A DNA stretch of 64,000 nt, from assembly GCA_963920575.1 (NCBI GenBank), contig OY986965.1, forward strand, positions 23,430,829-23,494,828, in the 5' to 3' direction. Positions 5,698 through 56,755 of the stretch are shown piece after piece. Position numbers and translations under genes: made by a program. Position 1 is the stretch's first letter. Each line of letters begins with the position of its first letter. Origin of the DNA: Narthecium ossifragum (lineage: Eukaryota > Streptophyta > Magnoliopsida > Dioscoreales > Nartheciaceae). The notes beneath the pieces are model-generated. The model was not told where the DNA came from. It searched no databases and saw only the letters and a program-made list of their open reading frames with translations.

Positions 5698-5702
5698 GAA
5701 AC

Positions 5703-31753: not shown

Positions 31754-31772
31754 CACCCCCAAACTTACACTT
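31754..31772 (-). promoter_or_regulatory. Athila polypurine tract
   Basis: Minus-strand GTGTAAGTTTGGGGGTG immediately precedes the TGATAAG start of the LTR. This is the second-strand priming site typical of Athila elements. Confidence 0.7.
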
Positions 31773-35732: not shown

Positions 35733-35953
35733 GGTCGACCGTCAGATCTCACGGTCGACCGTCGCGCTCAAAAATTCCCCCGAACGACCGTCGCATCGAC
35801 CGTCACATGCAAAACTTCCCACGGTCGACTGTGGCATCGACCGTCAGCCTCTGTGAAAGAAAATTCTTCTCAGGGTCGATCCGAAGATCGACCGTCGCTC
35901 TTCCGAATTATTTTGTACAGTTGACGGTCGACCGTGAGATCTCACGGTCGACC
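35733..35953. repeat. Palindrome array in B1 (ACGGTCGACCGT type)
   Basis: Doublets start at 35733/35753, 35782/35794, 35823/35835, 35874/35886 and 35926/35946, with internal spacing 12 or 20 bp. First cores are 41-52 bp apart. The two outer doublets are near-identical and enclose AGATCT. The linker CCTCTGTGAAAGAAAATTCTT lies at about 35848. Confidence 0.85.
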
Positions 35954-36005
35954 GCCAGATCAGCAGGGAGCGTATAATGAGCCGGATCTTACCCGAGTTT
36001 AGGCC

Positions 36006-36013
36006 TATAAATA
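36006..36013 (+). promoter_or_regulatory. TATA box of LTR B1
   Basis: TATAAATA, 53 bp after the last palindrome core; GGATCTTACCCGAG sits in between (about 35984). Confidence 0.65.
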
Positions 36014-37774
36014 CAATACTTAGGGTTATCAAAATGGGGCTTTTGGAGGACTTTTCTGGAGCATCTGGAGGAGAGGAAGCCGTGTTAGGGTTTTATTTTC
36101 TTCGTCTTTCTTTCTTTATTTTTCTTTGAACACTTTTGTCGTCTTCATGATGAACATGAGTGGCTAGTTTTTATTCTAAGGTACCGATGTAGCCATAACT
36201 GAATCATTCTATGTTATTGGATCATGATTATTTAATCAGTTTATATTTCTTGTTTCATTCATTATTATAACTGAGATCTTAAATACCTTTATCTGGCCAA
36301 TAGAAGTATTATAGATTGTGTTATGTGAGATTGGGCGAGGGTTCATTCCCTAATCTTGCAGGATCTATGAATGAATGAGTGTATGTCGAGGCCGGGTTCA
36401 AGCTAAGAGTATTCTTGGTTCATAATTGTTCTTCAGAGCTTAATGGATTCTTGGTTAACACTTAGTTATGGGTTCATTAGCTAGGGTTAATTGAGGGTAC
36501 TTGGTGAAGACCGCGGCCGAACGGATCATCATACCGGAAGAACGAGCCCTTGGAATTAAACTGACATCTTGATTGATTCAATGCATAGAATGAGGATGTT
36601 ATGGTGAAATCGGAACCTTAGTATTCATCCATCATATTTCCATCGTTTTCTTATTTCGTTTTTAGATCATCTATTCTCAATACTTCATATCTCTTATTTT
36701 CCCTTCTTTATTTTCTTTCTTTTCTGTTCTTTAGCGTTTCACTCTAATAATCTCTACAAATCTTTATGGGTACGATACTCGTCTTGCTACTATATTGATT
36801 GCACCGATTCGTATACTTGCGAGATACAAAATTTATTCATCATCCGCGGTATCCGCTCCTACGGATACCGTCGAAAACGGAATCCGCCGGTGAGCGAAAC
36901 GGCGGAATCCGGGAATCCAGAATCCGCAGATTCCAGGATCCGCCGGATTCACTCCCATTCCGGTGAGCCAAACAGGCCCTAAGTTTCCTATCTGTTGTGA
37001 CGGCATTGGTATCAGTATTAAGCTTTTTAATGGCCCACATAGCTCGATCTTCTAATTCAACAGGTAAATGACAAGACTTACCAAAAACTAATCGATATGG
37101 GGATTTACCAATAGGCATTTCATAAGCAGTCCTGTAAGCCCACAGTGCATCATCTAGGTTTATGGCCAAATCTGTACGGTCAATGTGAACGGTTTTCTCT
37201 AATATACGCTTTATTTCTCTATTAGAATGTTCTACTTGACCACTAGTCTGAGGATGATAGGGAGTGGGTACTTTATGTGTGATAGAATACTTTCTCTGGA
37301 GGGAAGCAAAATATTGATTATTAAAATGAGAACCACCATCGCTAATAATCGCACTAGGACAACCAAATCTAGAGAAGATATTACTTTGAAGAAATTTAAC
37401 CACAACTCTATGATCATTCGATTTGGTTGCTATAGCTTCTACCCATTTGGAAACATAGTCAACAACAACAAGGATATACTGAAAACCAAAGGAAGGTGGA
37501 AAGGGTCCCATAAAATCGATACCCCAGATATAAAAAATATCAACAACTAAAATCGGAGTCTGAGGCATCTCATTCCTACGAGAGATATTTCCAGTTTTCT
37601 GGCATCTAATGCAAGATTGGCAAAAATTATGAAAATCCTTAAAAGTTGAAGGCCAATAAAACAGGCCAATGAGATGCTACAGTGGTAACCCCACCAACTG
37701 CAGCCAGTCCGTCAAAACACAACATGCTATGGGAAGCAACCCCGACAAGAATACTAACAGTACAACATGCTATC

Positions 37775-39420
37775 TGATAAGACGTGAAAAGTGCATAAAT
37801 CACCCTTTTAACTTGGCCTTGTTAGTTTTCGAGCAAGGCTTTACTGACGAATATTACCCTATGACAGGTACAAGAGCCCTCAATGAGGATTGGATCAAGT
37901 TCCGAGCTTAAACGAAGTCATTTGGGCCAGTTTTGTATGAAGAAGATCGATCCTTTAAGGGACATGATCGATCCTTTGAAGCACATTAAGAAGGAATCAA
38001 GTTGGGACAACAAGGATCGATCCTCCATAAAGAGAAGATCGATCCCTTATGCGCATTTTTCAGTGACAGAGCGCAAGTTCTGAAGGATCGATCCTCACTA
38101 TGGGAAGGATCGATCTCTCATGTGCATTTTCCAGTGACAGAGCGCAACATTCTCTAGGATCGATCTCCATACACCATAGGATCGATCTTCATCGGGGCGC
38201 AGCTAGAACTCAAGAACAAAGATCGATCCTTTCCTATGGGAGGATCGATCCTCCACGGGACCAGCGATCACACGAAGAGGAAGATCGATCCTCTACCTTT
38301 CAAGGATCGATCCTTTTGTGCCAGCCGAGCAAAATCAATGGTCCAGATCTAATCCGAGGGGGGGAGGCTTGTTTACTAAAAATAGACCCCTTATGGGGGA
38401 TTTTAGGAGCTTCTCTTAGTCCTTTCTCCAGCCCTTCTATTTTCCTTACCCAATTGAGAGGAGGACTTCTTGGAGGGAATCCATGGGAGGAGAGCTTCAT
38501 CAACCTCCATCCATGGATCCAACCAAGATGAGTAGCTAACTTCCTTTCTCTTGGGATTTCCATGTAGTTGTAGGATTCTTTTGTAGTTTTCTTAGGATTT
38601 TTGGATGTGTAATCTTTAGGGATGATCTATTGTATGGATTTGAGCATGATTTCTTTATCTTTGTACATGGATCTTATATGTTGAATGGATGAATGCCTTT
38701 CTTTGGTATGAGCTAGAACTTGTACATGATAGATATTTGTTGTTATGCCCCAATGAGTTGGATGTGCTAGAAACGCATCCAATTACATTGGGAGGATGAA
38801 TAGCCCTAGATTAGAGATTAGGGATGCTAGAACCATCCCTATCTATCTAATTAGAGGATCCATTCTATCTTTCTCTTGCATTAGATTCGAGGTGCTAGAA
38901 CCATCTCGATCCAATGCCCGATTCCATACAATACCTTTACCTTGCGACGAATCGATCTTAATCGAGGGTTCGTTAGCGACGATAGAAGCTAATCACTCAT
39001 TCGTCGACTTTGTGAATGTGATTCCTTCCGGCGGATGATTCTAACCCGACTTCCGTTGAGCGATAAGTGAGGCTAACCACCCGCTTGTCGACTTCTTGAT
39101 TTCGATCGTCCCAATTGGATTACACACCTCAATTCCTTAGGAGGCTATATTAGAACCTACAATGAAATGGACATCCCAAGACCTCTCTATATTAGTTATA
39201 TTTCTCATCACTTAGTTAATTACTTTAATAGTCATTAATCCAAAACCCAAATCATTTTAGCTAGTTGTTTGGAGTTATCTATCGAGTACGTTAGTCAATT
39301 CTCATTTCCCTGCGGATCGACCCGGACTCCCGCTAACTACGTAGTAGTTAGTTAGGATTCGGTATAAATTGTAATCTCGACGCCCTAGTCACTTTTGCGA
39401 CGAGTGGTTTGGGCGCGTCA
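37775..39420 (+). mobile_element. Athila solo LTR (copy B2) with 5-bp target duplication
   Basis: Starts TGATAAGACGTGAAAAGTGC, ends GGGCGCGTCA and is 1646 bp. CTATC is duplicated at 37770-37774 and 39421-39425. The final part (GCTAACTACGTAGTAGTTAG, then GGTATAAATTG) is the conserved Athila LTR 3' end. It holds the most regular palindrome array of the window (37945-38312), a weak TATA-like box (38375-38385), and GATCTAATCCGAGG (38347) between them. Confidence 0.92.
37945..38312. repeat. Palindrome array in B2 (GGATCGATCC type), six doublets
   Basis: Cores start at 37945/37966, 38015/38037, 38086/38108, 38158/38180, 38221/38243 and 38283/38305. Spacing inside a doublet is 21 or 22 bp every time. 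Between doublets it is 70, 71, 72, 63 and 62 bp. CAGTGACAGAGCGCAA occurs twice between doublets (38061 and 38132). Confidence 0.92.
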
Positions 39421-40719
39421 CTATCTAAACATCCCGGGAGCCGTCACTCTCCCGGTTCACCACTACCCCTCATTATGGGGCTAACATGTTCAAAACTATG
39501 TACAAGTTATAAACCGGAAAAGAAAATCGCTTACGCGAAGCCCCGCGGGCAAATCCATTAAAACGCCTCTCAGCCACCAAAGAGATCCATCTCTCTACCA
39601 GAGAAGATCGATCTTCTTAGTGCTTGGGAAGCCTCGTCCCAGTCAACCGAAAGGGATCGATCTTCTCCACCACAAGGATCGATCTTCCTCGTGACTCGGA
39701 CCCCGCCCATGCCAGTTGTGAGGACCCGTACCTCCAACCGGGTCCGACCGCGTTAGGTCGAGGGACTGGTTTTGTGGTTTGGGTCGGTTGGCCTTGGGAT
39801 GCGATCGCATCGCTGGTTTTGTGGTTTGGTCGCATCGCTGTTTTTGACACATGGGCATTTTGGTAAATTTGCCCCATGGCGGTCGGTTTAACACCTGCGT
39901 TGCACACACTGCCTTTGATTGATGTATGTGATTGATTAGAATCTTAAAGGCGCTTCCGATCGGAAGATCGGAGCTCGATCGGGAGAGATCGAATCGAACG
40001 GCAGCAATCAATTCCAGCTTTCTATTTAAACCCTTCTCTTTTCTCTCCCTTCTCTTTCTTTCTCTTTCTCTCTTCCTCTCTCCTTCGTTGGCTGCCGGTG
40101 TGGAGCTTCTGATGCTGCTTTTTGGCGAGGATCCGTGGCGATCGGAGTTGACGATCTTGTAGATCGCCTGCACGTCTATACATGTAGATGTTTCTACCCA
40201 ATTCCTATGAGTTGGTAACCCTAGGATCGCCTTTTTGTGATTTGTGGCTGTTGTGTGTTTTGGAATGTTTTGATTTTCGGTATTCTTATTCCTTAGAATG
40301 TTTAGAAGCTAGTTGTGGTTTCATTTCTGTATTCTCTCGGACGGGTTCCGTATTTTTGTCGGTTTTTCGACGGGGTCGGACTCGGATATGATATTTCACG
40401 ATCTGAGTTTGGTTTTCATTGCATGAATGAATTCCCCACCATCAAATAGACCTTCCTGCAAAGTTTGAATGGATTCCATCACTGTTTGATAGATCAAATC
40501 CAATAAATTCAGGTTTTCGTCGGTTTCGTCGGCTTTCGAGCCATTTGATTTAATTCGGAGGTTTTGATCATCCAAAGTTGGATTTCTTAGTGTCATTAGA
40601 TTCCCCACATCCAATTTCACATGCCTACCAAGTTTGGTTTGATTTTGATACGTTTTGATAGGGTAAATCCAAGAAATTGGATCTCAGGCACTATTCACTC
40701 TTCTCTGCCGAGTATGAAG

Positions 40720-41057
40720 GATCGATCATTTGGATGAAATGATCATTTCCGTGGAAGTGTTCTGCTCCTTCTGAAGAAAATCCATCTTCTTGGGATAAGA
40801 AGATCGATCCTCTTCTTGACAGAGGGTGTGTTTGAGGAAGATCGATCCTCTAGTGCCAGAGGATCGATCCTTCTTCCCCAGACCGAACACCATCCTGAGG
40901 GAGATCGATCTTCTTTGAAGGAAGATCGATCCCTCCTTCGCAGGCAGGGAACACCCTTAAGGAGGATCGATCTTCCTTGCAAGGGAAGATCGATCACCCC
41001 TTCTTGAGTGGGATCACCCATGTAAATGATTGATCATCTTGGGTAAGATGATCTATC
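40720..41057. repeat. Palindrome array in A4, six doublets
   Basis: Cores start at 40720/40741, 40779/40802, 40840/40862, 40903/40924, 40965/40988 and 41028/41050. Internal spacing is 21-23 bp; doublet-to-doublet steps are 59, 61, 63, 62 and 63 bp. Spacers are themselves partly inverted (TTCCTTGCAAGGGAA, ATCTTGGGTAAGAT). Confidence 0.9.
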
Positions 41058-41280
41058 CTTTATATGCTGATTTGTATAATTTATCCGAATTTGATGTTTT
41101 CGGTTTCTTTTCTACCCGAATTTCTCGTGTGACTTTCCGGATGATAGGTAAGGATTATTATAATATTTTAATCGGGATTTTAATGGGTTTATCCTCGGAT
41201 TACGCCGTGATTTATATTCCGGATCGGTTTACCGATTTCTACTGGTTTTGAAGCAGTTTCCCGATAAAGCATGTTATATG

Positions 41281-41590
41281 ATAAGTCACTAAATGTTCAT
41301 GATTCAACCCCCTAACTTAGCTTTATTATACCTAGAGTAGTTGTATTTGATAGCTCGTTAGTTAATTTCAGGTTTAATCATGCTTTGAGAAGAAATGCAG
41401 GAAATTCGGCTAAAATGACTAAATAAACTGCTTCGTCGACCGTCAGTAATATATTCTCCAGATATTTTACAAAGGTCAAAATATTCTGAAACTTTGGGAT
41501 ATTGTAGAAAACTCAGAGATCTACAACGTTTCTGTTGGAGACTTTGCGAGATTCTTGATGGAAGTAATGTGAGTTTTCCTTAGAAATGAG
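41281..41590 (+). mobile_element. Athila LTR 5' fragment (B7) inside A4
   Basis: Starts TGATAAGTCACTAAATGTTC and follows the B6 LTR start (ACCTAGAGTAGTTGTATTTGATAG, then TTTCAGGTTTAAT). It fades out near 41590. No second boundary or duplication was found. Confidence 0.55.
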
Positions 41591-42873
41591 ACTGAACCTG
41601 GGACTTGTAGTTTCCCCTCTTTCCTGTGTGACGTAGAGTAGAGTAGAACTCTACTGAGTTTATTGCTCACTCCTACCCAGGCTGTGTTTGTAGGTGCAGG
41701 CGTCAGCTCTTCCTTGGTGGTTTCAGCTGGATCAGGTCTTGGCAGCGTGTTGACTTCCGGAGGCGTTTGAGGTCTCAGAGGGACAGATGTATATTTTGGC
41801 AGCTTTTGTTTAAAGTTATCCTTTGAGGATGATATATTTAACGTTTAATATATGAAATCATGTTCCCTCTTTTGATTGAGTTTTATTCCGCAATGTAATA
41901 TCTAGTTTTACCTTTATGCCTTTAGAAATCTTTAAGTTCAAATTATTTCCGCTTTGTGTATCATCGCGCCGCATCGGATGTAACTAGTGTAGGTTTCCCC
42001 TCACGTCCCGGCCCGGATGGGTTTTTTGAGTCGGGGTGTGACACCAGCCAAGCAAGGATCAACCTTCTCCAACAGAAGGATCAATCCCGCTCGGGTTGGG
42101 CATGACGTCCCACAAATGATCGATCTTTCCTCAAGAAAGATCGATCCGATTGAGGAAAGATCGATCCGAATGGGTTCACCGACGAACCGCCGGGGAGAAA
42201 TAGCACCGGAAAATTCCATCAAATCCCATAAAACCTTGGGATCTGGTAGTACGAAGGACCACGAGTTCAAAACCGAAGATTTCATTGAAAACAAACATGT
42301 ATATAATCAGATCTAAGCAAACAGAACCACAATCAAACTCAAACCTCACAAATCTGAAAAAATAAGTAGGCAGGATCCCTACCTAGACTAGAGCAGCTTC
42401 AATCCAAGCTGCTAAGCCTTGTATCATCCTAAATCTCCTTCAAATCCAGCCGGATCTCAACTCAACAACGTGGATTTGAAAAGAAATCAAGGAAGTGGAT
42501 TTCGTTCGTTCTATAGACGGATGAACCGTCTTATGAGAGATCGATCTTTCATGACGAACAAACTTAACTTTCTAGTGCTAAAAGATCGATCTCCTTAGCA
42601 AGGGAAGATCGATCTCCTTCGCAAGGGAAGATCGACCCCCTTTGCCCAGAAAGCTAGACTTGGGCTAAAACAGAAGGCCAAGCCAGGATCCTTCGATCCC
42701 GGGTCCACCTAACCATTCTAATCAAACATTTACACAAACACGGTCAGTGTGTGCACACACGAGTGTGAAAAAAACCGACAATGCATAATTTATCAAATTA
42801 CCCCTGTGGTCCACAACGAGCCACGGGCCCGACCCAAGCGGTCGACCCAGGAGTAGAGGGACAGGTCCTCACA

Positions 42874-43350
42874 TAACTACTTCTTGATACTCTCAACTTT
42901 CTATAATGCCCAATCTAATACCCTATAAAATAGAAATAATATCTTTAGAAAATTGGTTATAACACCAATTAATGAAATTTATTGCCAAAAAACCCATTAG
43001 CTAAGTTTTTAAGGTTAAAACCCCACCGCGGTATTAGTTGGCGTATTATTCAAATAGAAGACTGAAATACCTTTATCTTCCAATGCTAATGATGGCTATC
43101 TCATGCACGAGCATTAGTTGCAGTTGTCATCCTTCGACGATCTACCCCACGTGCGAGTTTTAGTTGTCGTCGTCTTCCTCCGATGATCTATTCGTCGTCT
43201 TCTTCGAGAACCCTCACATTTTATGTGTGAATTTCTCCAATGGGGGTGGATTGAGTGGATCCGACATCTTGACGGTGGTCCAAACACCCTAAGAAATAAG
43301 ATAGCAAATGAAAACAAATGAAAACAAAAGCGAACAAACTCAAACAACCT
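42874..43350. other. Non-coding spacer between A6 and the non-autonomous element
   Basis: No gene seen. Positions 43120-43205 contain a short duplicated CGTC/CGATGATCTA phrase. Confidence 0.4.
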
Positions 43351-44605
43351 GATACGAGTCGATCCGATTCGACCAACTGGACCCGAACCCAAAAGAGGAA
43401 CCAAACTGGTTCAGACTCTTTCCTAGTTTGACTTGGACTTCCCTAGTTCAAACTAGAGTATTTAATTAGTATTTATCATTAGTCTTTTATTGAGTCCTAG
43501 TTGATTGTTAGGAATTAATTAAGAGTCCCTTTAAGTTAGGAAGTTGAGTTGAGTCAGAAACCTTATTACTTGCTAATCAAGCAAGGGGGTTTTTCTAGTG
43601 GATTAGGACTCTGTCAAGGTCTCTATAAAAGGACCTTAGTAGTTTGTATTAGGTTATGCATGAGATGAATGATTAAGAGTAATTAGTAGAATATCATAGG
43701 AGTAGAATATCATAGGAGTAGAAGTAAAGTAGATTCCACCCGAAATCCACCATAGATCCACCTTCTTCCCCGTCGGTCATCTTCTCCGCAGCCGGCATCG
43801 CCTTCACCTTCATCTTCTTTCTCCCCGTCACTTTCTCTCTCCGCCACGTCAGCGACCCCACCGCCACGTCACCCGCTACTGTTCATCTTCTTCCTCCTCT
43901 CTCCTCTGTCCCGAAACCCTAGCTCACCGCCGTTCTCCCCTCTCCGGCCACCCCCGTCGCCACCTAAACCCGCCATCCTCTTCCCCTTGGCACCACGACT
44001 CCGGCCATACCCTCCATCGCCCGCGTCGTCGTCTCCGGCCTCTTCCCCCGGCAACCCGACCCTCGTCCTCACCGCCATCAACCACGCCCGATCCCTATCC
44101 CACCTCCAAAACCCCCGCCGGTGAACCCAAACCCCCGCCGTCCCCGACGCCGGTGAACCCAAACCCCCGCCGTCCATCTACCAGATCCGGCCGATCCGCC
44201 ACTTACCTCACCGATCCGAGCCGGTAGATCTCATCCCCACCTCCAGGCGACCCTTTCTGGAAGCATCCCGACCACCACCGCCGTCCCTACGCCGGCGATC
44301 CACTCCGGCGACTTCTCAGCCCTCGGATCCAGGCTGGTTCAGCCAGCCAACTTGAATCAGTTGATTCAGCCGAGCCCGTTAATCCGGATCCAGCCCAATC
44401 TAAGCCGATCAGCTTGATCCAGATCACTTCAGACTTGACCCAGTCAAGTCCCATCCAATCAGGCTCAGCCGGATCCGACACAGCTCAAGCCAGATCCGAT
44501 ATAGCTAGCCAAATCAGCCCATTGGACTGAAATCAAGTCCGATTCTGATCGATTGGAGCAGTAGAGACCCATTACGAGAGGATCACGAGTAGACCGTTCG
44601 TAACA
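43351..44605 (+). repeat. 5' LTR of the non-autonomous element
   Basis: Contains TATAAAAG near 43623, a plausible TATA box. A 20-bp duplication (AGAATATCATAGGAGT repeated near 43688-43725) is absent from the 3' LTR. A segment present in the 3' LTR at about 47311-47398 is replaced here by a shorter direct repeat of CCCGCCGGTGAACCCAAAC. Confidence 0.88.
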
Positions 44606-44608
44606 ACT

Positions 44609-44620
44609 TGGTATCAGAGC
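44609..44620 (+). promoter_or_regulatory. Primer-binding site (initiator tRNA-Met type)
   Basis: TGGTATCAGAGC, three bases after the LTR end. Confidence 0.88.
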
Positions 44621-44669
44621 TCCGTTCCACCGACTGTGCGGTTCAGACTCTACTGGAAACTTCGCCACC

Positions 44670-46493
44670 ATGTACGGAGTACCCCAGGAAATTTTGGAGC
44701 AGCAATTCAAGATTACGCAGTCCCAGTTGAAGCTCTGTTCAACTTTGATGGAACGCCAAAGCAGAAACTTGGAGCGCACCAGTAGACAGTGGGAGCAGAT
44801 TACCAGTAGATGGTCAACTGTGACTCAAACAAGTTCCATAGGGAATCAGGTTTTGAGTCAGACCCTTGCTCCAGCTGCAACCCAGATTACGGAACCTGAC
44901 CCCGAGCCAACTCGGATTAGGACTCCGACTGAGACTCCTTCTGCAACTCCGAGAGCAACCACAATTGCAACTCAGAGTTTAACTTCGCCAGACCCGGGTG
45001 AACACTTGCAACTATCTTCCCATGATTTTTCCGGAATTTTTCCTATTTTTCCAAATTTTCCCGGAAATTTCCATGGTTTTCTCTCTCTTCCCGGTTCGGC
45101 TCACCCACGGCTTAGCCACGTGGCTCGTCTGCTTCCTCGCGACCAGCTCATCGCTGGCTCAGAATGGCTGAAGAGTGTGCCGTCCCCATCCCTCCATCGG
45201 CGACCGTCGCCTGGCCGCCCTTTCATGGAAAGCCCGCCCCAGGAGCTTAGGCGACCTTCTCCGTCGCCTTCCTACCCGGTCCAGGCCTCGCCCGTCCTCT
45301 CCTCCGGCTCCGGCGACTACACTCGACAAGGACTTGGAACTCCACCGCCCTATGCCGCCGTTCCACACCACCTTGGACCTTGGAAAGACATCCAGAAGGA
45401 CCGGCGTCCTTCCCTGAAGCCACCTTGGCCTGCCGCAACCACGAAGGAAGCCTGGATCGCCGACATTCAACTCCGGCGAACTCCCCTGTTCTGGCATCCT
45501 CCAATCCGCCACTTCCCGGGAATGATCTCAAGATCAAAACCCCGGAGAAAGGTCCCAAGACCTTCACGAACCGTTTCCACCCATCCCCGGCTACCAATGA
45601 GCCCTCATTCACCGACGATCACCGGTGACGTTCTCCACCGCGCCGCCACCTTCAGATCCGGCGTGCTCGAGGCCCCATCCAGCGATCAAACCGTACGGAT
45701 GGAATTCCCTCGTCCCTACGAAGCTTCCTGTGCCGTTGCCGCTCTCCGACGAGCTCGTTTCGCCGTTGATCCAGCTCCGACAGCTTCTCAGCCGTCCGAT
45801 CAAGACTGCAACTTGATCCAACCGTTTGATCAGCATGATCTTCGATCCAGTGGTTCCGATCTTCGATCTGAACCTGATCCAAGAGTCCCCAGCAATCAGG
45901 ACCATCCAGATCAACTCCATGTGATCAAGATGCATCCTCAGCCGTTGATCAAGCATTCAAAGGTTGAGATGAGTCATGAAAGGAGCTACCCTCCTTATCC
46001 AGATTTCATCTACAATCTGATCAGATCTGATTATGATGGTAACACCGGTTTAGCTCAACTGACTCAAGTCCAGATTGACACCGATAGAGCCAACCAAGTC
46101 AGACAGGTTTGGACCAGAGTACGACTCAGCACAGCTGAAGATTCAACTTGGTTCAACCAACTTCTAGCCCAGACTAGTGCAGCAGAAGCGTGGTCCAGCC
46201 ATCTTCACTTCAGATTGGACCAAAGCCAGCTTGACCCAGATTCAAGCCAAGTCCCTGCACAGTTGATTAGACCATGGACATCAGATCCCATCCTATGGTC
46301 ATGGGCAACACTACTGATGGGACATGATGAGGATGATCCAGGAGAGCCATTGAAGATCATATTCCTGGAGCTACCTGAGCCGTTAGATCGACCGCCAGAT
46401 GCTCATCCATCACTGCCACTGCTACCACTGGACCCGACATGGGATCGACCTGGTTTCTCCCCCACCGAGTCCAGAACTATAGCAGCAAGTTGA
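44670..46493 (+). CDS. 607-residue protein of the non-autonomous LTR element, function unknown
   Basis: This uninterrupted frame fills most of the internal region. Residues 1-55 (MYGVPQEILEQQFKIT, then Gln/Arg-rich) could be helical and may be a remnant of a gag N-terminus. Residues 56-110 are Thr/Pro-rich. Residues 110-135 are Phe/Pro-rich (FPIFPNFPGNFHGF). Residues 170-380 are Pro/Ser/Arg-rich and lie in GC-rich DNA that is also open in other frames, so this part may be open by composition. Residues 400-607 are acidic with many Asp-Pro, Gln and Trp. I see no CCHC knuckle, protease or RT motif. It could be a diverged gag, a captured host segment or partly spurious. Openness over 1.8 kb argues for recent selection or recent origin. 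Confidence 0.55.
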   Translation: MYGVPQEILEQQFKITQSQLKLCSTLMERQSRNLERTSRQWEQITSRWSTVTQTSSIGNQVLSQTLAPAATQITEPDPEPTRIRTPTETPSATPRATTIATQSLTSPDPGEHLQLSSHDFSGIFPIFPNFPGNFHGFLSLPGSAHPRLSHVARLLPRDQLIAGSEWLKSVPSPSLHRRPSPGRPFMESPPQELRRPSPSPSYPVQASPVLSSGSGDYTRQGLGTPPPYAAVPHHLGPWKDIQKDRRPSLKPPWPAATTKEAWIADIQLRRTPLFWHPPIRHFPGMISRSKPRRKVPRPSRTVSTHPRLPMSPHSPTITGDVLHRAATFRSGVLEAPSSDQTVRMEFPRPYEASCAVAALRRARFAVDPAPTASQPSDQDCNLIQPFDQHDLRSSGSDLRSEPDPRVPSNQDHPDQLHVIKMHPQPLIKHSKVEMSHERSYPPYPDFIYNLIRSDYDGNTGLAQLTQVQIDTDRANQVRQVWTRVRLSTAEDSTWFNQLLAQTSAAEAWSSHLHFRLDQSQLDPDSSQVPAQLIRPWTSDPILWSWATLLMGHDEDDPGEPLKIIFLELPEPLDRPPDAHPSLPLLPLDPTWDRPGFSPTESRTIAAS

Positions 46494-46559
46494 TTCGGTC
46501 CAGCCACATGGAGCCATCCTACCTGACCTGACTCTGGCCTTGAGGACAAGGCCAATTTT

Positions 46560-46573
46560 GAAGGAAGGGGGGG
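46560..46573 (+). promoter_or_regulatory. Polypurine tract of the non-autonomous element
   Basis: GAAGGAAGGGGGGG directly before the TGATACG start of the 3' LTR. Confidence 0.85.
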
Positions 46574-47885
46574 TGATACGAGTCGATCCGACTCGACCAA
46601 CTGGACTCGAACCCAAAAGAGGAACCAAACTGGTTCAGACTCTTTCCTAATTTGACTTGGACTTCCCTAATTCAAACTAGAGTATTTAATTAGTATTTAT
46701 CATTAGTCTTTTATTGAGTCCTAGTTGATTGTTAGGAATTAATTAAGAGTCCCTTTGAGTTAGGAAGTTGAGTTGAGTCAGAAACCTTATTACTTGCTAA
46801 TCAAGCAAGGGGGTTTTTCTAGTGGATTAGGACTCTGTCAAGGTCTCTATAAAAGGACCTTAGTAGTTTGTATTAGGTTATGCATGAGATGAATGATTAA
46901 GAGTAATTAGTAGAATATCATAGGAGTAGAAGTAAAGTAGATTCCACCCGAAATCCACCATAGATCCACCTTCTTCCCCGTCGGTCATCTTCTCCGCAGC
47001 CGGCATCGCCTTCACCTTCATCTTCTTTCTCCCCGTCACTTTCTCTCTCCGCCACGTCAGCGACCCCACCGCCACGTCACCCGCTACTGTTCATCTTCTC
47101 TGCTCTGTCCCGAAACCCTAGCTCACCGCCGTTCTCCCCTCTCTGGCCACCCCCGTCGCCACCTAAACCCGCAATCCTCTTCCCCTTGGCACCACGACTC
47201 CGGCCATACCCTCCATCGCCCGCGTCGTCGTCTCCGGCCTCTTCCCCCGGCAACCCGACCCTCGTCCTCACCGCCATCAACCACGCCCGATCCCTATCCC
47301 ACCTCCAAAACATCCCTAAAGCCTTCCTCGTCTCCCCACGACCCTTTCCCGACCATCTTCCCGACGTCCCAAGCCCCAGCCGAGCTCCCTCATCGTCCCC
47401 GACGCCGGTGAACCCAAACCCCCGCCGTCCATCTCCCAAATCCGGCCGATCCGCCACTTACCTCACCGATCCGAGCCGGTAGATCTCATCCCCACATCCA
47501 GGCGACCCTTTCTGGAAGCATCCCGACCACCGCCGTCGTCCCTACGCCGGCGATCCACTCCGGCGACTTCTCAGCCCTCGGATCCAGGCTGGTTCAGCCC
47601 GCCAACTTGAATCAGACTCAGCCAAGTCTAATTGATTCAGCCGAGCCCGTTAATCCGGATCCAGCCCAATCTAAGCCGATCAGCTTGATCCAGATCACTT
47701 CAGACTTGACCTAGTCAAGTCCCATCCAATCAGGCTCAGCCAGATCCGATCCAGCTCAAGCCAGATCCTATATAGCTAGCCAAATCAGCCCATTGGACTC
47801 AAATCAAGTCCGATCAGGCCGATTTTGATCGATTGGAGCAGTAGAGACCCATTACGAGAGGATCACGAGTAGACCGCTCGTAACA
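46574..47885 (+). repeat. 3' LTR of the non-autonomous element
   Basis: Nearly identical to the 5' LTR apart from indels; ends CGCTCGTAACA and is followed by CAACC. Confidence 0.88.
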
Positions 47886-49035: not shown

Positions 49036-49045
49036 CTTATATATG
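49036..49045 (-). promoter_or_regulatory. TATA box of LTR B3
   Basis: Minus-strand ATATATAAGG, downstream of the palindrome array in LTR orientation. Confidence 0.5.
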
Positions 49046-49119
49046 GACATGAAAACCTAGCTTTTATTTCAGCCTTTGGATTAAATCTGATGGCTCGTAT
49101 TCAGATCCGCCTGACAAAG

Positions 49120-49409
49120 GATCAATCCTCTGAAGGCCAAGGATCGATCTTTCTCTTCTCTAGTTCTCCGTAACCTGGGTCGCCCGAGTAAGATCGATCC
49201 TTCAATAGGTGTAAGATCGATCCTTTGATATCAACATCTTCAATTTCTGGCTACGCCCGAGTAAGATCGATCCTTTGAAAGAGGCCGGATCGATCCTTCT
49301 CAGTAGGATGGATAGTAGGATCGATCCTTCTGTGGTCATCTTAAAAGTATGTGTTCTGTTAGGTCTGTCTGCATAAAAGGATCGATTTTATTAGGGAACA
49401 TGATCGATC
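49120..49409. repeat. Palindrome array in B3
   Basis: Cores start at 49120/49142, 49192/49215, 49265/49288, 49307/49319 and 49380/49402. Spacing is 22-23 bp in four doublets and shortened in the fourth. First cores step by 72 and 73 bp at the start. Confidence 0.85.
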
Positions 49410-50890
49410 CGTCTTTCCTGAGTATTTACTGTCTTGCCATCCAGACTGCGCCATTGGTACTAAAATTGCCCTAACTTCCTTTAGAAAACTCGAAATCACG
49501 AACTGTAAAAGCTCCCGGAAACTAGACTTCCAGAGCTTTCAAACCATGTATAGCACATCAACTGGTTCATTCTGAGAAGGTACAGTTTTGGCGTTAAAGA
49601 CCGATCTTTGCTTCAATCTCTTGCATAATATAAATAACTTTGTGAAGCAACATATACGGACGAAATCATCTATATTAATCATAGAAACTAAGCAAATAAG
49701 CTGCTCTTAGTCATGCTCAGAGTGCACTTTCATGCACTCAGCAGTAGGCCTTTGTTTTTGCCTTGAATATCCTGTAACTCTCATAAGCATCATTCCTGAG
49801 TTCATCCAGCTCAGACAGCTGGAGTTTCAGTTCCTGACCTGCAGCATTCAAAGTAAAATTTAGTGATTTAATAGCCCAATATGCCCTATGTTCTAACTCA
49901 ACTGGAAGATGACATGGTTTTCCATAAACTAGGCGAAATGGCGACATCCCCAGGGAAGTCTTGTAGGCAGTGCGATATGCCCACAACGTGTCTGATAGCC
50001 TCAAGGACCAGTCTTTTCGGTTAGGACTCAATGTCTTTTCCAGGATTTGCTTTATCTGTCTATTGGCTAATTTAGCTTGATCATTCGTCTGTGGATGATA
50101 AGCAGTGGAAACCATATGTGTGACTCCATACCTGCGCATCAAAGCCTCAAGAGAGCGGTTACAAAAATGCAATCCTTGGTCACTAATAATAACCCGATGA
50201 GTATCAAATCTAGACAAAACATGCTCTTTGAGAAACTTGATGACAGTGGAATGATCATTATTCCTACATGCGATAGCCTCCACCCACTTAGACACGTATT
50301 CCACAGCAAACAATATATATAAATAGCCAAAAGAAGAAGGAAAGGGTCCCATAAAGTCTATACCCCAACAATAAAAAATTTTTACAGTTTGAATGGGGTT
50401 CAAAGGCATCATATGTCTCCTATATAAAGCTCCTAACATTAGACATCTATCACATGATCTGCAGAAAATATTAACATCATGAAATATAGTAGGCCAGTAA
50501 AAACCACATTGAAGAATTTTAGAAGCAATCTTTTTCATCGAAAAATGGCCTCCACATGCATGAGAGTGACAGAATGCAATGATACTTTCTATTTCATAAT
50601 CAGGAACACAACGACGGATGATCTAGTCAGGACAATACTTAAATAGACAAGGATCATCCCAATAAAATTTTTTTACCTTAACAAAAAATCTACGCTTATC
50701 TTGCGCACTCCAAAACGAAGGGATCTCACATGTCGCTAAGTAATTAACAATGTGCGCATACCAGGGCAGCCGTGCAACTGAAAAGAGTTGCTCATCAGGG
50801 AATTCATCCATGATCGGTGGCTCATTTTCTGCTACTTCCACCATCAATCTTGATAGGTGACCAGCGACAACATTCTCTAAGGGAAAGCGA

Positions 50891-51839
50891 GGACTGCTCG
50901 AGCACCTAAAAACAAAAGCAAAACAAACCGAAAACAAAAGCAAACATGCAAGCACACAACATAAAAATAACTCAAGCATTCTCAAGCATACAAGAAAGCA
51001 AATCAAGGAAACTAAACTACTATATACAAGACAGGGATTTTTAACCGCGCCCTTGGTGGCCGTGCCCTAGCACGATGATATGCAAAATCAGTAAGTGCCA
51101 TGACTTGAAAGGTTAACTTTAGTAATATCACCAAGGGTAATTCACCATGTGAATCCAAGTGGCATATTACAAGTGGGAGAACAAGCTTTTGCATTCTAAC
51201 ACCAATAAACAAGATAGCTGGCTCTCTTAAATAAAAATATGTGTCATCATTGTGCTCATGTTTCAGTGACTCATCCAATGACCTTTCAATAATGTCATCA
51301 TGCTCGTGGTAAAGGATGGTAAGATTACAAAATCTGAAATAAATCCGTCGAAGTCTAAAAGTATCTATCAAGGTCATGTTCTTCCTAACTATCCAAGGAA
51401 ATGAAATAAACACTGGAAATATACCTCGTGGCTTAGAAGCAATTACTTGAAGTTCAGCCGATGGAGGTTCAACAAATACATTGTCATGGTGGTCTTAGTA
51501 GTCGTCCGGATCTTCCTCACTGCTGACCTGCCCGTACTGGAGTACTTTGTCTTCTTCCAACTGATGTGTCCATCCGAGTTCGTGCACGCTGAAAGATGTG
51601 ATTACCTCGCATTGTTGACATGCCTTCTCCTCATCTTTCATAAGTAACTGCAAAATGAAAGAGTCAAAATTAGGCTTGGTTTTAGCCTCCTTAAGTAAGT
51701 CCAAAATCTCTGCCACAGAAAGTTAAGGAGAAACATGTGCATCGCCAACATCAGAGACATGAACATGTGCATTACTAACATTGGAATATGCGTCACACAC
51801 ATTAGAATTAATAGCTTGTGCATCAATAGGACTAGAATT
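50891..51839 (-). pseudogene. Athila gag-pro/linker remnant with RT deleted
   Basis: A minus-strand 133-residue frame (51413-51012) and shorter frames lie between gag and the RNase H end. None contains RT motifs (no YxDD). Athila RT needs about 1.5 kb, so a deletion is implied. Confidence 0.5.
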
Positions 51840-52583
51840 TTAAACATGCATACTAGTACTACAGTCATGAGCATATGCATCATCAACATGAACATCTTGA
51901 GCATGTGCACCATAAGCATTAAAATCATGGATGTATGCATCACAAGCACTAAAGTCATCGACACATGAATCATGCACGTTAGGCTCATCAACATGCACAT
52001 CCTGGGAAGAAGCAACATAAGTATCATAAGCACTAGGATAAGAGTAGAAAGGCTCATTGTGTTGCAAATAGATGTTGGACGTTAAGGGGACATTGGGATG
52101 CTTGTAGAATTTGGCATCGATATGATCATGATAACCATCCCAGCGCCCCGGAACCGTCTGTGTATAAGTCGTCTCAACAAGCTCATCCAAGTGCTTCATA
52201 GCTTCATCAGGATCAATCTGTAAAAACTCACCCTCGCATTTTGTTTCAAGAATTTGACATTCATGCTCAGTTAATCCATAATAAAAATAGCTAACTAAAC
52301 ACCAACTAACATAACCATGTTGAGGGCATGAAACTATTAAACTTTTAAATCGCTGCCATGCATCACATAATGTCTTATCATCCTTTTGTGAAAAGGATGA
52401 AATCTTTTTTTTCAATGCGTTAATCTTATAATTAAAAAGATACTCATTGACAGAAACATGACTCATTCTATTCTCCTCCCTCAATTCATATATACTTTTC
52501 TTACGAACTGTTGTTTGAGACATTTCATCTCTCGAATTCATAGAACATGATCTCAAATAATCTTGATATAATTCATTTTCCAT
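51840..52583 (-). CDS. Athila gag fragment with His/Asp-rich repeat tail
   Basis: A 247-residue minus-strand frame starts about 210 bp inside the 5' LTR. Residues about 75-100 carry the retrotransposon gag signature (WQRFKSLIVSCPQHGYVSW, then FYYGLT), followed by a spacer. The C-terminal 60-70 residues are a degenerate repeat rich in His, Asp, Ala and Val (DVHVD, DAYIHDF, GAHAQDVHVDDAYAHD). In normal elements gag assembles the cytoplasmic particle and packages RNA. Here pol is broken, so this is a relic even though the frame is open. Confidence 0.65.
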   Translation of the reverse strand: MENELYQDYLRSCSMNSRDEMSQTTVRKKSIYELREENRMSHVSVNEYLFNYKINALKKKISSFSQKDDKTLCDAWQRFKSLIVSCPQHGYVSWCLVSYFYYGLTEHECQILETKCEGEFLQIDPDEAMKHLDELVETTYTQTVPGRWDGYHDHIDAKFYKHPNVPLTSNIYLQHNEPFYSYPSAYDTYVASSQDVHVDEPNVHDSCVDDFSACDAYIHDFNAYGAHAQDVHVDDAYAHDCSTSMHV

Positions 52584-52773
52584 CCCCTTTTTTTTGTCAG
52601 TTTTTTTTTCAGCAAGTAAAAATAAAACTAAACATCAAAATAAAAATAAAAATAAAATAAAGAAAACTAAGGAAAAAGAAATAAAAATCCAAAGAAAAGG
52701 GAACAAAGTTACCGCCTTCGATGTCTTCAATCATCGTGATCTGATGATTCTGGCGCTTTTCTGAACCGTCTCC

Positions 52774-52789
52774 TCGGCAACGGCGCCAA
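52774..52789 (-). promoter_or_regulatory. Athila primer-binding site (tRNA-Asp type)
   Basis: Minus-strand TTGGCGCCGTTGCCGAG directly after the 5' LTR, the characteristic Athila/Tat primer-binding sequence, with one difference from TGGCGCCGTTGCCGGGG. Confidence 0.85.
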
Positions 52790-52793
52790 TTTT

Positions 52794-54470
52794 TTATATC
52801 GCTCAAATATGCCACAACACAGCGGTCGCGGTGCAGTACAACATAAGAGAGATCGAACCCACACAAAGACAAGCAGAAAACATCCAAAACGCAAATAACA
52901 ATGAATTGAAGACAAACGAGAACTTAAGAATTAACTAAATTAGATCAAACGATTAAATTATAATGTAAGGTTAACTAAAGATATCAGGATTTTGATAAGG
53001 CTAGGCATCGGGAATCACTTCACTCGGACTTAGGTTCTTCTTCTACCAACGGTTCATTCAATACTTAGTTAAGGGATTCACATCCCAATCACCTTAACCG
53101 GAAGATATGGAATTATGTACCTAACAAAATATATAAATGTCTCTTCCTACGATTGATTCTTCCTTATTATATTCTAACTTCATCCGACCCAAACCTAAGA
53201 ATATATGATACCGGCTGTCACTACAGGCAACGTATAGCAAAAATTCATTGGGACAAAGCCCTAACTCTATCTTACCATATCTCTAAGAATACACAATACC
53301 AACTCTCACAATCGGCAATGCATAGCAAAGATTTCACGAGATAAAGTAGGTAAACAATAGATATAATCCTTGAAGATTGAATACATAGAAAAGAGTTTAA
53401 CAATAAAGATTAAAACTATGAACCATGATGAAGAAGAAACCCTAATCCTCTCTAGATCATCCGTCCGCCATGCCTGCGGCTTACCCGACCATGGATGGAG
53501 ATTTCTTCATCTATAGCTCCGTAGAACCCCCCTTGGAACCAGCCAAATTTCGGATTAAATAAGCATATATATATGGGAACTCCCGAAATTAGGGTTTTAG
53601 TTGAGTTGGACTTCTGGTGCAACTCGGATTTCCTGAATTAATCCTAGCAGCCCTATTCTGGTCACAACTGGGTCCACTCCAGCCGGAATTGGGAAACATT
53701 CTCAACACAAAAGTTGTAGAATAGGAAGTCTTCCACCAGATTCCAAAGATTTCGTAATATACTGAGTTATATGAAATATTTGACGAATATTCTTCTCAGC
53801 TTCGACAGAACAATTTTCCAGCTTGTCTAACTTCATCTATTCTTCCAATCTGCTATCACACCATCCAGAATCCCACAAAATATCCAACATAAAAGTTGTA
53901 GATCTCTGAGCTTTCTATCACGTATTCCAATTGCAGAATATTTAGACTTCTAGAGAATATGTTCCGAATATTTGCCTACCAGTCGACGAAACTGTATTTC
54001 TCCTCATTTGGTGTAACCTGGGTCGCCCTGACTAAGATCGATCTTCATAGGGAAAAGGATCGATCTTCTTGAAACTAGCTCTCTATCAAATCTCTGTCAG
54101 TGTCTGAGCACAAAAACGAGATCGATCTTCTTTGGGATCCGATCGATCTTCTTCTTCCGTAGCTGCTTGCTCCTGCAACTCTCGTACTAAAAATAGTATA
54201 TCTTCCTCTACGAAACTCCAAATCCCAAACCGTAAAACCGCTCGGAAACTAGACTTTCAGACCTTTCCAGCCATATATGGCACATCATCTGGTTCATTCC
54301 TAGAAGGTACAGTTTTGGCGTTAAAGACCCATCTTTGCTTCAATTTCCTGCATAATACAAATAACTTTGTGAAGTAACATATACGGACGAAATCATCTAT
54401 ATAAATTATCAAAACTCAGCAAATAAGCTGCTCTTCGTCATGTTCAGAGTGCAATTTCATGCACTCATCA
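52794..54470 (-). mobile_element. Athila 5' LTR (copy B4)
   Basis: Minus-strand LTR starts TGATGAGTGCATGAAATTGC at 54470 and ends near 52794 next to the primer-binding site. It is 1677 bp and collinear with B3. It retains only two palindrome doublets (54036/54058 and 54120/54141, spaced 22 and 21 bp). A TATA-like run lies at 53565-53575. The matching 3' LTR with flank ATGGG was not found; the element is truncated. Confidence 0.87.
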
Positions 54471-55040
54471 ATGGGTATTTGAGATGCGTTCTTGCTTCGG
54501 ATTGTGATTTCAATGGTTTGTTTTAGATTGCAGCTACTTTGGGACTCCAATTTATTGATCTGGAAGTTTCCGACGGTGGTCTTAGCATTTGTGGCAGTAT
54601 AAGTGATGTGGGGTTTTCACACATTGATAAGGTCACTGATGACGCTAAGGTTGATATGCTTGCTGGTTTTTGTCGTCATAACAAAAGGATGTTGATGACA
54701 GTTGGTTGGGATCGATCTATCACTCACGAGGGGCAGAAATTTGAAGGCGGTGTGACGGAGTTTAGATTGTGTTTGCAAAAGCAATCACTTGCATTGGGTT
54801 ATGGGTATACATTTGTTAGAAATGAGCCTACTAGAGTCACAGCGGACTGCCCGAAGAAGAATATATAGTACTGGTTCTGATTGGATGGTACTTGCTGCTC
54901 ATGAACCGATCAATGCATTCTTTTATCTTAGAAACTTATTAACGTCCAAACATGTGGAGGAGCTTCCTGTACATATAAGCATAATCGGATGGCTCCAAGT
55001 TGGTTGCAAGTCTGATCGAAGATCAGGTGCGTGCTAAGAC
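54471..55040 (+). pseudogene. Mutator-like transposase N-terminal fragment
   Basis: The frame 54539-54868 reads MGLQFIDLEVSDGG and ends with ALGYGYTFVRNEPTRVTADCPKK. This matches the start of the MuDR DNA-binding domain, where a K/R-V-x-A-x-C zinc ligand follows. A shifted frame continues to about 55037. The 5' side is cut by the Athila LTR at 54470. No DDE catalytic domain follows. Confidence 0.6.
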
Positions 55041-55109
55041 AGCGACGCGTCCTATTGACATAGGTCAACAATTCACCACCAACTAAGGTTCGTGGTACCA
55101 TACTTTATT

Positions 55110-56163
55110 TGAAAAATATAAGTGATTTTATAGTATATTTTGATTAAAAATATGGAACATCACATGAAAATGTTAGCCACATTGAGCATTAATAATTTTT
55201 AATATTAATAGGGATTACTAACAAGCTCATGCATAAGCTGTAAAACACTCGTACACCAGTCGCCAATGATTCGTAGTAAGCATACGACGAATATGTAGTA
55301 TTGTGATACCATACTTTATTTTTAAAAAAAAAATTGATTTTAGTGTATATTTTGATTAAAAATATGGATATTTTTATTGTGATTTTATCATAAAAAATGA
55401 TAGCATGCGAGCATAAATAATCATTAATATGAACTACTAACAGACTCGTATATCAAGTAAAGCAAACTCGCGCTACAGTGGCCAATGAAGCCACTAATAA
55501 TACACTTTATTGTAACAAAACCTTGTGATTTTATAGTATATTTTATTCAAAGATTTGGAACATAACGATTTTAAAATGGTCGCCAGTGAGCATAAACAAT
55601 CACTAATACCGACTACTAACAGACTCATGTATCAGGTAAAGCAAACTCGTGTTACAGTAGCCAATGATTCGTGCTACATATAAAATGAATATGTAACTAC
55701 TCATAATACACTTTAGTGTAATAAAACATTGTGATTAATACACTTTAGTGTAATAAAACATTGTGATTTTATCGTATATTTTGTTCAAAAATATGGAACA
55801 TAACAATCATAAACTGGTAGGCAGTGAGCAGAAACAATCATTAATACATACTACTAACAAACTCGTATATTAGGTAAAGCAAACTCGTGCTACAGTGGCC
55901 AATGTTTCGTAGTACGTATACCATGAATATGTAACCACTCATAATACACTTTAGTGTAGCAAAATCTTGTGATTTTATCATATATTTTGTTCAAAAAATA
56001 TGAAACATCACATCAAAATGATAGCCACAATGCGCATCAACAATTATTAATATGGAGTATTAATAGGCTCGTACATCATTTGAAAAAGACTCGTATACCA
56101 GCAACCGGTGATTCGTGGTATATATAATACGAATATGAAAAATGCACACCATGAATCTTTGGG
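55110..56163. repeat. Tandem repeat, about 190-240-bp unit, five degenerate copies
   Basis: Copies start near 55122, 55333, 55524, 55762 and 55968 with GTGATTTTAT..TATATTTTG. Each continues with ATGGAACATCAC-like, TAATATGGACTACTAACA-like and ACTCGT..ACCAGTCGCCAATGATTCGT phrases. A sixth copy begins at about 58097, beyond the inserted LTR B5. Confidence 0.8.
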
Positions 56164-56337
56164 AGCCCTGATAAGTCACAAAATATACATAATTCACCCA
56201 TTCAACTGGGCTTTGTTAGCTCTCAAGCAATGCATTTTTAATATCTTTTCATATGGTTTCAGGTACAAGAGCTTACGAAGAGAGTTGCATTGATTTCGAG
56301 CCAAAAGACATCAATTATACAGATTCAGCTTAATTCG

Positions 56338-56683
56338 GATCGATCCGGACAATTTGGATCGATCCAAGAACAATTTGGATCGATCCAAGGACATTTTGGA
56401 TCGATCCCGATCCTTTTGCAGAAGGCCATATTTTTTATCCAATGTTGGATAGGTCCGAATTCTTAATGGATCGATCCAAATATCTTTTCCTAGAGAGCTC
56501 GGTACAAAATGGATCGATCCAAACCGTCATGGGATCGATCCATATTTCTTTTCCCAAGAGCACTTATTCTTGGGTACAAATTGGATCGATCCACATTTAA
56601 ATGGGATCGATCCATATTTCCTTCCCAGAAAGGTATGATCTTTTGCTCATCTTGGATCGATCCAATCCTACTTCGGATCGATC
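56338..56683. repeat. Palindrome array in B5 (TTGGATCGATCCAA type)
   Basis: Cores start at 56338, 56357, 56378 and 56399, then at 56448/56469, 56512/56533, 56584/56605 and 56655/56676. Spacing inside doublets is 21 bp each time (19 for the first step). Doublet steps from 56378 are 70, 64, 72 and 71 bp. The dyad is extended by TT..AA flanks in many copies. Confidence 0.92.
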
Positions 56684-56747
56684 CAAGATCGCTGACGGTT
56701 ATAAATGGACGGCTCGGATCTAATCCGAGGATCCACGACTTGGGGTC

Positions 56748-56755
56748 TATAAATA
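56748..56755 (+). promoter_or_regulatory. TATA box of LTR B5
   Basis: TATAAATA in TCTATAAATAGGGG, 65 bp after the last palindrome core. Confidence 0.75.

What the first reader, a model, noticed from the sequence alone, without database searches (positions are those of the whole stretch)
35733..56755. CG-centred palindrome arrays sit just upstream of the TATA box in unrelated LTR retrotransposons
Seen: arrays of GATCGATC or GGTCGACC cores occur in Athila LTRs B1 (35733-35953), B2 (37945-38312), B3 (49120-49409), B4 (54036-54148) and B5 (56338-56683), and in the Copia LTR at 29476-29779. In LTR orientation the last core lies 53 bp (B1), 63 bp (B2, weak box), 75 bp (B3), 65 bp (B5) and 88 bp (Copia) before a TATA-like box. 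B4, which kept only two doublets, is about 460 bp away. Known: U3 enhancers of LTR elements lie at this position. Inference: this is a modular enhancer or regulator-binding array, possibly for a host factor or an element-encoded anti-silencing protein (as VANC proteins recognise short motif arrays in VANDAL Mutator elements). Symmetric CpGs at each core would make binding methylation-sensitive. Athila (Ty3) and SIRE-type (Copia) have no common LTR ancestry, so transfer or convergence is needed.
Basis: partly seen in the sequence, partly recalled or inferred. Interest (0 to 1): 0.88.

Follow-up and report, generated by a model that had tools for sequence, protein, structure and literature searches.

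The report
Shared palindrome arrays before retrotransposon promoters
In this plant genome many retrotransposons of different lineages carry, just before their start-of-transcription signal, rows of the same short mirror-image DNA word spaced by whole turns of the helix, which looks like a shared docking array for a DNA-binding protein.

Summary
GATCGATC occurs 61 times in 24-60 kb of the window (0.85 expected) and 155 times in an evenly spaced 200-kb sample of the same genome. Doublets 18-24 bp apart occur 77,693 times in the 379-Mb genome; the pattern read backwards, 17 times. GATCGATC followed by CTATAAA at 41-71 bp occurs 10,547 times, the opposite arrangement 461 times. Core-to-core distances follow the DNA helix (best period 10.35 bp; 34 of 40 arrays in phase). 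Cores differ at 3.5% of sites, spacers at 14.3% (19 of 19 pairs kept). Arrays occur in Athila-type and chromovirus-type Ty3 LTRs, in Sirevirus-type Copia LTRs (8 of 10 picked) and in one internal linker. Best reading: a modular U3 array of sites for a dimeric, probably host-encoded DNA-binding protein, perhaps partly passed between lineages. The precedent is the Sirevirus repeated motif (PMC2829016), called Sirevirus-specific there; its Vitis version CGGTCGACCG is the core seen here in Copia and in Athila-type B1. The factor, its activity and methylation are untested.

The parts
35733..35953 (+). B1 array: 6 cores (4 GGTCGACC, 1 GGTCGATC, 1 GATCGACC) in a solo Athila-type LTR 35390-36842 (target duplication TCCGC by eye); TATAAATA 52 bp downstream
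37945..38312 (+). B2 array: 12 GATCGATC in six doublets, solo Athila-type LTR 37775-39420 (target duplication CTATC by eye)
49120..49409 (-). B3 array: 7 exact GATCGATC plus decayed GATCAATC (49120) and GATCGATT (49380); 3' LTR about 49740-48206 of an Athila-type element
54036..54148 (-). B4 array: two doublets in the partner 5' LTR about 54470-52794
53543..54001 (-). stretch homologous to array-less LTR 31154-31612 (73%), between the B4 array and its TATA
56338..56683 (+). B5 array: 11 GATCGATC, solo Athila-type LTR 56169-57850 (target duplication AGCCC by eye); TATAAATA 64 bp downstream
29476..29767 (-). Copia (Sirevirus-type) LTR array: 6 GRTCGAYC cores; LTR starts about 29901 on the minus strand; TATAAAA 87 bp downstream; gag-type zinc knuckle ORF 30599-30850 behind it
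26138..26451 (-). T26 array: 8 GATCGATC in a TGTGAGGAC-type LTR; TATATATG 84 bp downstream (not in the finding)
42539..42637 (-). T42 array, first part; LTR interrupted by T40, further parts 42118-42166 and 39606-39684
40720..40995 (+). T40 array: 8 GATCGATC in a nested solo LTR 39717-42043 (target duplication CCAGT/CCAGC by eye, 4 of 5 bases)
34435..34805 (-). A34 array: 7 GRTCGAYC in the linker of an Athila-type element, between its integrase C-terminus (ORF 35412-35086 and on) and an extra ORF (from about 33976); weak TATTTAAAT about 100 bp after the array (score 5.0)
34573..34598 (-). accessory spacer element shared with the Copia LTR (29598-29622) and B1 (35848-35872)
31186..31756 (-). 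X31: U3 of the LTR that follows a polypurine tract at about 31766, read as the 3' LTR of the A34 element; no array

Best explanation
The arrays are cis-regulatory modules in the U3 of LTR retrotransposons: rows of sites for a DNA-binding protein that recognises a dyad (octamer GRTCGAYC with family-specific flanks), binds as pairs about two helical turns apart on one face of the duplex, and acts on the TATA box some 20-100 bp downstream. SHOWN: motif excess, position and polarity relative to TATA, helical phase, core conservation, presence in several lineages. INFERRED: that a protein binds, that it is a host transcription factor, that it activates. The array behaves as a module: B3 has GATCGATC where the related B1 has GGTCGACC, a neighbouring LTR segment has been exchanged in B4, and one spacer element is shared by Copia and Athila-type elements. 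The internal array before an extra ORF may serve a second promoter, as proposed for Sirevirus ENV genes.
For: Genome: 77,693 doublets, backward control 17; array-to-TATA 10,547 (backward control 59), TATA-to-array 461 (backward control 48). Sample outside the window: 12 of 27 arrays have a strong TATA within 150 bp pointing away, 2 of 27 pointing toward. Helix: 616 distances in 40 arrays, best period 10.35 bp, R 0.41 against jitter maximum 0.134; 34 of 40 arrays and 6 of 6 coarse sequence groups positive. Conservation: core differences 32 of 910 sites, spacers 355 of 2,486; 19 of 19 kept pairs. Lineages: Ty3 gag and rve ORFs between B3 and B4; an ORF with H2C2 and SH3_Tf2-1 above cut-off and rve below it ends 75 bp before a TGTGAGGACC LTR (L036); zinc knuckle by the Copia LTR and 8 of 10 picked Sirevirus-signature LTRs with three or more cores. 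Flanks pair more than a shuffle across families (p 1e-4).
Against: No binding, expression or methylation data. Flank pairing vanishes in shuffles within families (p 0.86), so it rests on few families; in 89 doublets the flanks facing each other across the spacer exceed the 97.5% null at 4 of 4 positions, single-core flanks at 3 (core 1) and 2 (core 2) of 4, which also fits hairpins. Phase of TATA to array: p 0.0006 for 17 arrays, 0.17 after collapsing like values. Arrays are related to one another: 6 single-linkage groups, which do not match lineages. Listed rows of the TATA pattern are largely related Athila-type promoters. 2 of 10 Copia LTRs and three LTR types of the window have no array; the 87-bp TATA distance was seen in 3 of the 8 Copia LTRs with arrays. 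The arrays fold strongly as RNA (z -4.3 to -11.6).
Confidence: 0.7

Rival explanations
1. The palindromes matter as RNA or hairpins: U3 at the RNA 3' end folds and feeds host small-RNA silencing, or serves packaging or template switching.
For: Strong RNA folds: z -7.3 (B2), -11.6 (B5), -4.3 (B3), -5.3 (Copia). Flanks facing each other inside doublets pair above null at 4 of 4 positions. Small RNAs in excess on Sirevirus palindrome clusters in maize (Bousios 2016, known only through passages of PMC10760457).
Against: Helical phase of cores and polarity to TATA are not expected of an RNA role; a pure cost to the element would not conserve cores. May be a by-product of the same arrays.
Confidence: 0.15
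2. An element-encoded factor (VANC-like anti-silencing protein or a transactivator from an extra ORF) binds the arrays.
For: Motif arrays with coordinated turnover resemble VANC targets, and VANC6 motifs also occur in a TE unrelated to VANDAL (AT9TSD1) (PMC5735166, passages). One array lies before an extra ORF (33976-33461).
Against: Several lineages with different proteins share the motif. VANC motifs are directional, without a known TATA rule. ORF piece 33461-33883: no Pfam match, no homolog at E 0.001.
Confidence: 0.07
3. Assembly artefact: GATCGATC is the junction sequence of Chicago proximity-ligation libraries (text of PMC5288721).
For: Exact identity of the octamer.
Against: Same array in diverged copies (Copia LTR region of L023 against window 82% over 2,091 bp); 18-24 bp doublets; GGTCGACC, GATCGACC and GGTCGATC forms, which such a junction would not give; polarity to TATA.
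Confidence: 0.01
4. Neutral tandem duplication and shared ancestry only: a few families amplified and carried their LTR repeats along.
For: Many arrays are homologous; 71-bp units in B2.
Against: Cores 3.5% against spacers 14.3% divergent; spacers within an array only 0.54-0.61 identical while cores are intact; phase rule in all 6 coarse groups.
Confidence: 0.05
5. The arrays act on chromatin (nucleosome exclusion, insulator or centromere-type binding) rather than on transcription.
For: Very many sites; helical phase fits any duplex-binding protein.
Against: Polarity to TATA and recurrent TATA distances point to the promoter.
Confidence: 0.07

Closest known systems
Sirevirus repeated motif (RM), Bousios et al. 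2010, PMC2829016 (passages and sections 9, 10, 19 read)
   Same: Palindromic motif in many copies, clustered in the LTR upstream of a TATA box, with further copies upstream of the ENV gene in ENV-bearing elements; Vitis RM CGGTCGACCG is the core of this Copia LTR and of Athila-type B1.
   Different: Called Sirevirus-specific and absent from classic Ty1/copia; here also in Ty3 LTRs of two kinds. The main core GATCGATC lacks the CGG-CCG signature. Helical phasing and cross-lineage sharing are not in the parts I read.
VANDAL/VANC target arrays, PMC5735166 (passages read)
   Same: Short-motif arrays in non-coding parts of a plant TE, turning over together.
   Different: VANC motifs are directional and bound by a TE-encoded protein; here a dyad motif tied to a TATA, no factor known.
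GATCGATC in upstream regions of rice sperm-expressed genes, PMC3224587 (one passage read)
   Same: The same octamer reported as a repeated motif (15 genes, 54 duplications).
   Different: Host genes, no LTR context, no factor identified.
Maize palindrome in structured regions of Copia elements and Helitrons, PMC10760457 (passages read)
   Same: One palindrome found in two TE superfamilies.
   Different: Different motif; whether Helitrons captured Copia pieces was not looked at here.

Membership tests
Sirevirus RM | palindromic motif with dyad symmetry | tested here: met
   GATCGATC and GGTCGACC are exact palindromes
Sirevirus RM | at least eight copies per element | tested here: inconclusive
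   B2 12, B5 11, T26 and T40 8, B3 7, B1 6, Copia LTR 6; decayed copies not counted, most elements are solo LTRs or broken
Sirevirus RM | CGG-CCG signature | tested here: inconclusive
   met by CGGTCGACCG in Copia and B1; not met by the GATCGATC arrays, which are the majority here
Sirevirus RM | cluster upstream of a TATA box in the LTR | tested here: met
Sirevirus RM | extra copies between pol and an ENV gene | tested here: inconclusive
   A34 array lies between integrase and an extra ORF, in an Athila-type element; the ORF is not shown to be an ENV gene
Sirevirus RM | restricted to Sireviruses (Ty1/copia) | tested here: not met
   Ty3 elements carry arrays
Sirevirus RM | RM cluster forms a CpG island | not tested
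   only CpG o/e of LTRs outside cores was computed, 0.73-0.91
VANC target array | TE-encoded DNA-binding protein | tested here: inconclusive
   no candidate; the ORF piece tried has no Pfam match or homolog
VANC target array | directional motifs arrayed in one orientation | tested here: not met
   the motif is a palindrome
Athila-type Ty3 element (B3/B4, A34) | Ty3 gag and integrase domains | tested here: met
   Retrotrans_gag, rve, H2C2; named top hits of the integrase are mostly plant proteins (best 120 of 7,921 listed). The name Athila is recalled; no classified reference was compared

The most novel reading that the evidence does not exclude
One host DNA-binding protein has become the common promoter factor of many retrotransposons of this genome: Ty3 Athila-type, Ty3 chromovirus-type and Ty1/copia Sirevirus-type LTRs have all acquired helix-phased arrays of its dyad site, partly by passing the array as a module between lineages, so that its site is the commonest palindromic 8-mer of the genome sample and unrelated elements hang on a single switch.
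Probability: 0.4. Interest if true: 0.87.

Novelty: new variant of a known kind. Interest (0 to 1): 0.74.

Why it matters
Arrays described as a Sirevirus speciality are, in this genome, shared by Ty3 and Ty1/copia elements with common spacing rules. That makes an old question testable: which factor drives plant LTR retrotransposons, and do unrelated elements converge on it or trade enhancer modules? One pulldown with one short probe could name it, and a single factor would link the control of many elements of a genome.

Tried and rejected
Rejected: chance; random placement near promoters; hairpin as sole explanation (helical phase); proximity-ligation artefact.

Led nowhere: homolog searches with the extra-ORF piece and the Copia gag piece; Pfam for several ORF pieces; viral contigs (8 contigs with a three-core pattern, not studied; none confirmed). 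Genome contigs gave L009/L010, one plant-like Ty3 element in two bacterial assemblies, without this motif. Phase of TATA to array not significant after collapsing. TGACAGAG is 17-fold denser in arrays, but its 5 array hits are all in the window. Searches for GGTCGACC doublets and for TGACAGAG beside GATCGATC did not complete (109, 123).

Literature: none of the rows listed is, by title and opening, a report of such arrays in Athila or chromovirus LTRs; several lists were capped (20 of 3,475, 15 of 17, 10 of 19, 10 of 39), most subscription papers are not held, and Bousios 2016 is not held.

Dropped before counts: one search kept the best alignment per pair, 76-97% identity and at least 120 bp; the wider set (34 alignments) gave 5.0% (79 of 1,593) for cores and 19.6% (1,197 of 6,102) for the rest. 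One search dropped arrays of fewer than 3 cores, of fewer than 4.

Recalled, from no call: the name Athila, the Sirevirus signature word used, the primer-site type.
Full report
WHAT IS THERE. The window lies at C3:23430829-23494828 of a 379,400,290-bp genome in 150 contigs. GATCGATC occurs 62 times in the window, 61 of them in 24-60 kb, and is its commonest 8-mer on the strand as given; GGTCGACC occurs 11 times. A first-order Markov model of 24-60 kb predicts 0.85 and 0.29. With the hybrids the motif is GRTCGAYC, 88 occurrences, 79 of them in 12 clusters of 3 to 12 cores. Spacing is mostly a doublet of 19-23 bp, then 38-51 or 62-83 bp.

THE ELEMENTS. B1 to B5 are Athila-type LTRs by their ends (recalled type) and by Ty3 gag and integrase ORFs between B3 and B4. 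B1, B2, B5 and the nested T40 look like solo LTRs with target duplications read by eye. B1/B3/B4 and B2/B5 form two related groups. T26, T42 and T40 begin TGTGAGGAC. In the genome sample an ORF with H2C2 and SH3_Tf2-1 domains above cut-off and rve below it ends 75 bp before such an LTR (L036), so I read this as a Ty3 chromovirus-type lineage. The Copia LTR is followed by a CCHC-knuckle ORF and carries a signature I recall as Sirevirus-type. The array at 34435-34805 is not in an LTR: it lies after the integrase C-terminus of an Athila-type element and before an extra acidic ORF; the LTR behind that ORF (X31) has no array.

GENOME SCALE. GATCGATC-N10-16-GATCGATC: 77,693 places, backward control 17. 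In 20 stretches of 10 kb at even steps on contigs C1-C4, GATCGATC occurs 155 times, the top 8-mer on the strand as given and the top palindromic one; A-runs and T-runs taken together are commoner (89+99). It is absent from 8 of 20 stretches, all in the first 1-13 Mb of their contigs. The sample covers four contigs and is richer in doublets than the genome average, so I give no genome total of cores.

POSITION. GATCGATC-N41-71-CTATAAA: 5,496+5,051 places, backward control 22+37. CTATAAA-N41-71-GATCGATC: 225+236, backward control 30+18. Among the listed rows of the first pattern many have the TATA about 63 bp after the core, in visibly related promoters, and one array can count more than once, so these are not thousands of independent cases. 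In the sample, 12 of 27 arrays have a strong TATA pointing away within 150 bp, 2 of 27 one pointing toward; with the window 17 and 3 of 37. The Sirevirus-type signature has 608 places. I took about every tenth of the 100 listed rows, ten in all: 8 have three or more cores, though in L043 and L046 they are sparse; in L039, L042 and L045 a TATA lies 87 bp after the last core, as in the window; the other five show none there; L044 and L047 have no core.

HELIX. The core-core distances of 15-160 bp in 40 arrays (28 sample, 12 window; 616 distances) have their best period at 10.35 bp, phase -0.06 bp at 10.45, that is whole turns; R is 0.41 against a maximum of 0.134 in 400 jittered sets; 34 of 40 arrays agree. 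With two more loci, 6 of 6 coarse sequence groups agree (p 0.03); single linkage puts Copia, linker and chromovirus-type arrays in one group, so groups are not lineages.

SELECTION. In 19 homologous array pairs, cores differ at 32 of 910 sites, the next 6 bp at 250 of 1,262, spacers at 355 of 2,486; in 19 of 19 cores are the more conserved. CpGs are lost in 29 of 299 core cases and 118 of 458 others. A core was counted if intact in at least one partner. In nine window array zones 59 cores are exact and 9 have one mismatch, 7 of these at the CpG.

DYAD. Flank pairing beside single cores exceeds a shuffle across families (p 1e-4) and not one within families (p 0.86). In 89 doublets of sample plus window, single-core flanks exceed the 97.5% null at 3 of 4 positions for the first core and 2 of 4 for the second; flanks facing each other across the spacer do so at 4 of 4. 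Family-specific longer palindromes explain the first; hairpin-like doublets would also explain the last.

SHARED MODULE. With exact cores masked (half-sites left), the linker array and the Copia LTR share 94 bp at 74% (E 3e-14), B1 and Copia 49 bp at 78% (E 4e-7). With half-sites also masked, linker and Copia share 24 bp with score 16 against a null maximum of 15; one other cross-family pair (linker-B5) also reached 16. With wider masking and more copies, linker-Copia scored 18 and linker-B1 16 against a null maximum of 14 in 100 shuffles, while the linker against the second Copia copy reached only 14 and B1-Copia 11. Unmasked, the second Copia copy matches the linker array over 209 bp at 72%. 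The module is inverted in Copia relative to the element. So transfer is favoured, not proven, for the GGTCGACC subtype; for the GATCGATC arrays of different lineages convergence stays open.

MECHANISM. I take the arrays as U3 binding arrays for a dimeric duplex-binding protein, most likely host-encoded because several lineages use it. Shown: excess, polarity, phase, conservation. Inferred: protein, host origin, activation. An RNA or silencing effect through hairpins is compatible as a side effect.

KNOWN. The Sirevirus repeated motif is the direct precedent. Membership fails on the restriction to Sireviruses and, for GATCGATC, on the CGG-CCG signature; it may well work like one.

Noticed in passing
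window 43340-47885: LTR pair about 90% identical (43350-44605 / 46574-47885) around a 629-aa ORF (44604-46493, +) without Pfam match; no array of the motif.
   Followed up: partly
window 33461-33976 (-): Extra acidic, Ser/Pro-rich ORF after pol of an Athila-type element, behind an array and a weak TATTTAAAT; interrupted by a stop; the piece searched has no homolog.
   Followed up: partly
window 41279-41990: Fragment resembling the start of an array-less Athila-type LTR (75% to 31474-31753) inside solo LTR T40.
   Followed up: no
L009, L010: A plant-like Ty3 element of about 9 kb, 99.6% identical, sits in assemblies of two different bacteria (contamination, by inference).
   Followed up: partly
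L023:4443-4625: A GGTCGACC array lies about 250 bp before an ORF with Pfam Transposase_32 (4876-6051): a second array in front of an internal ORF.
   Followed up: partly
L001-L008: Eight viral contigs hold the three-core GATCGATC pattern; not studied.
   Followed up: no
window 23356-23936: 590-bp inverted self-match (85%), a possible foldback element.
   Followed up: no
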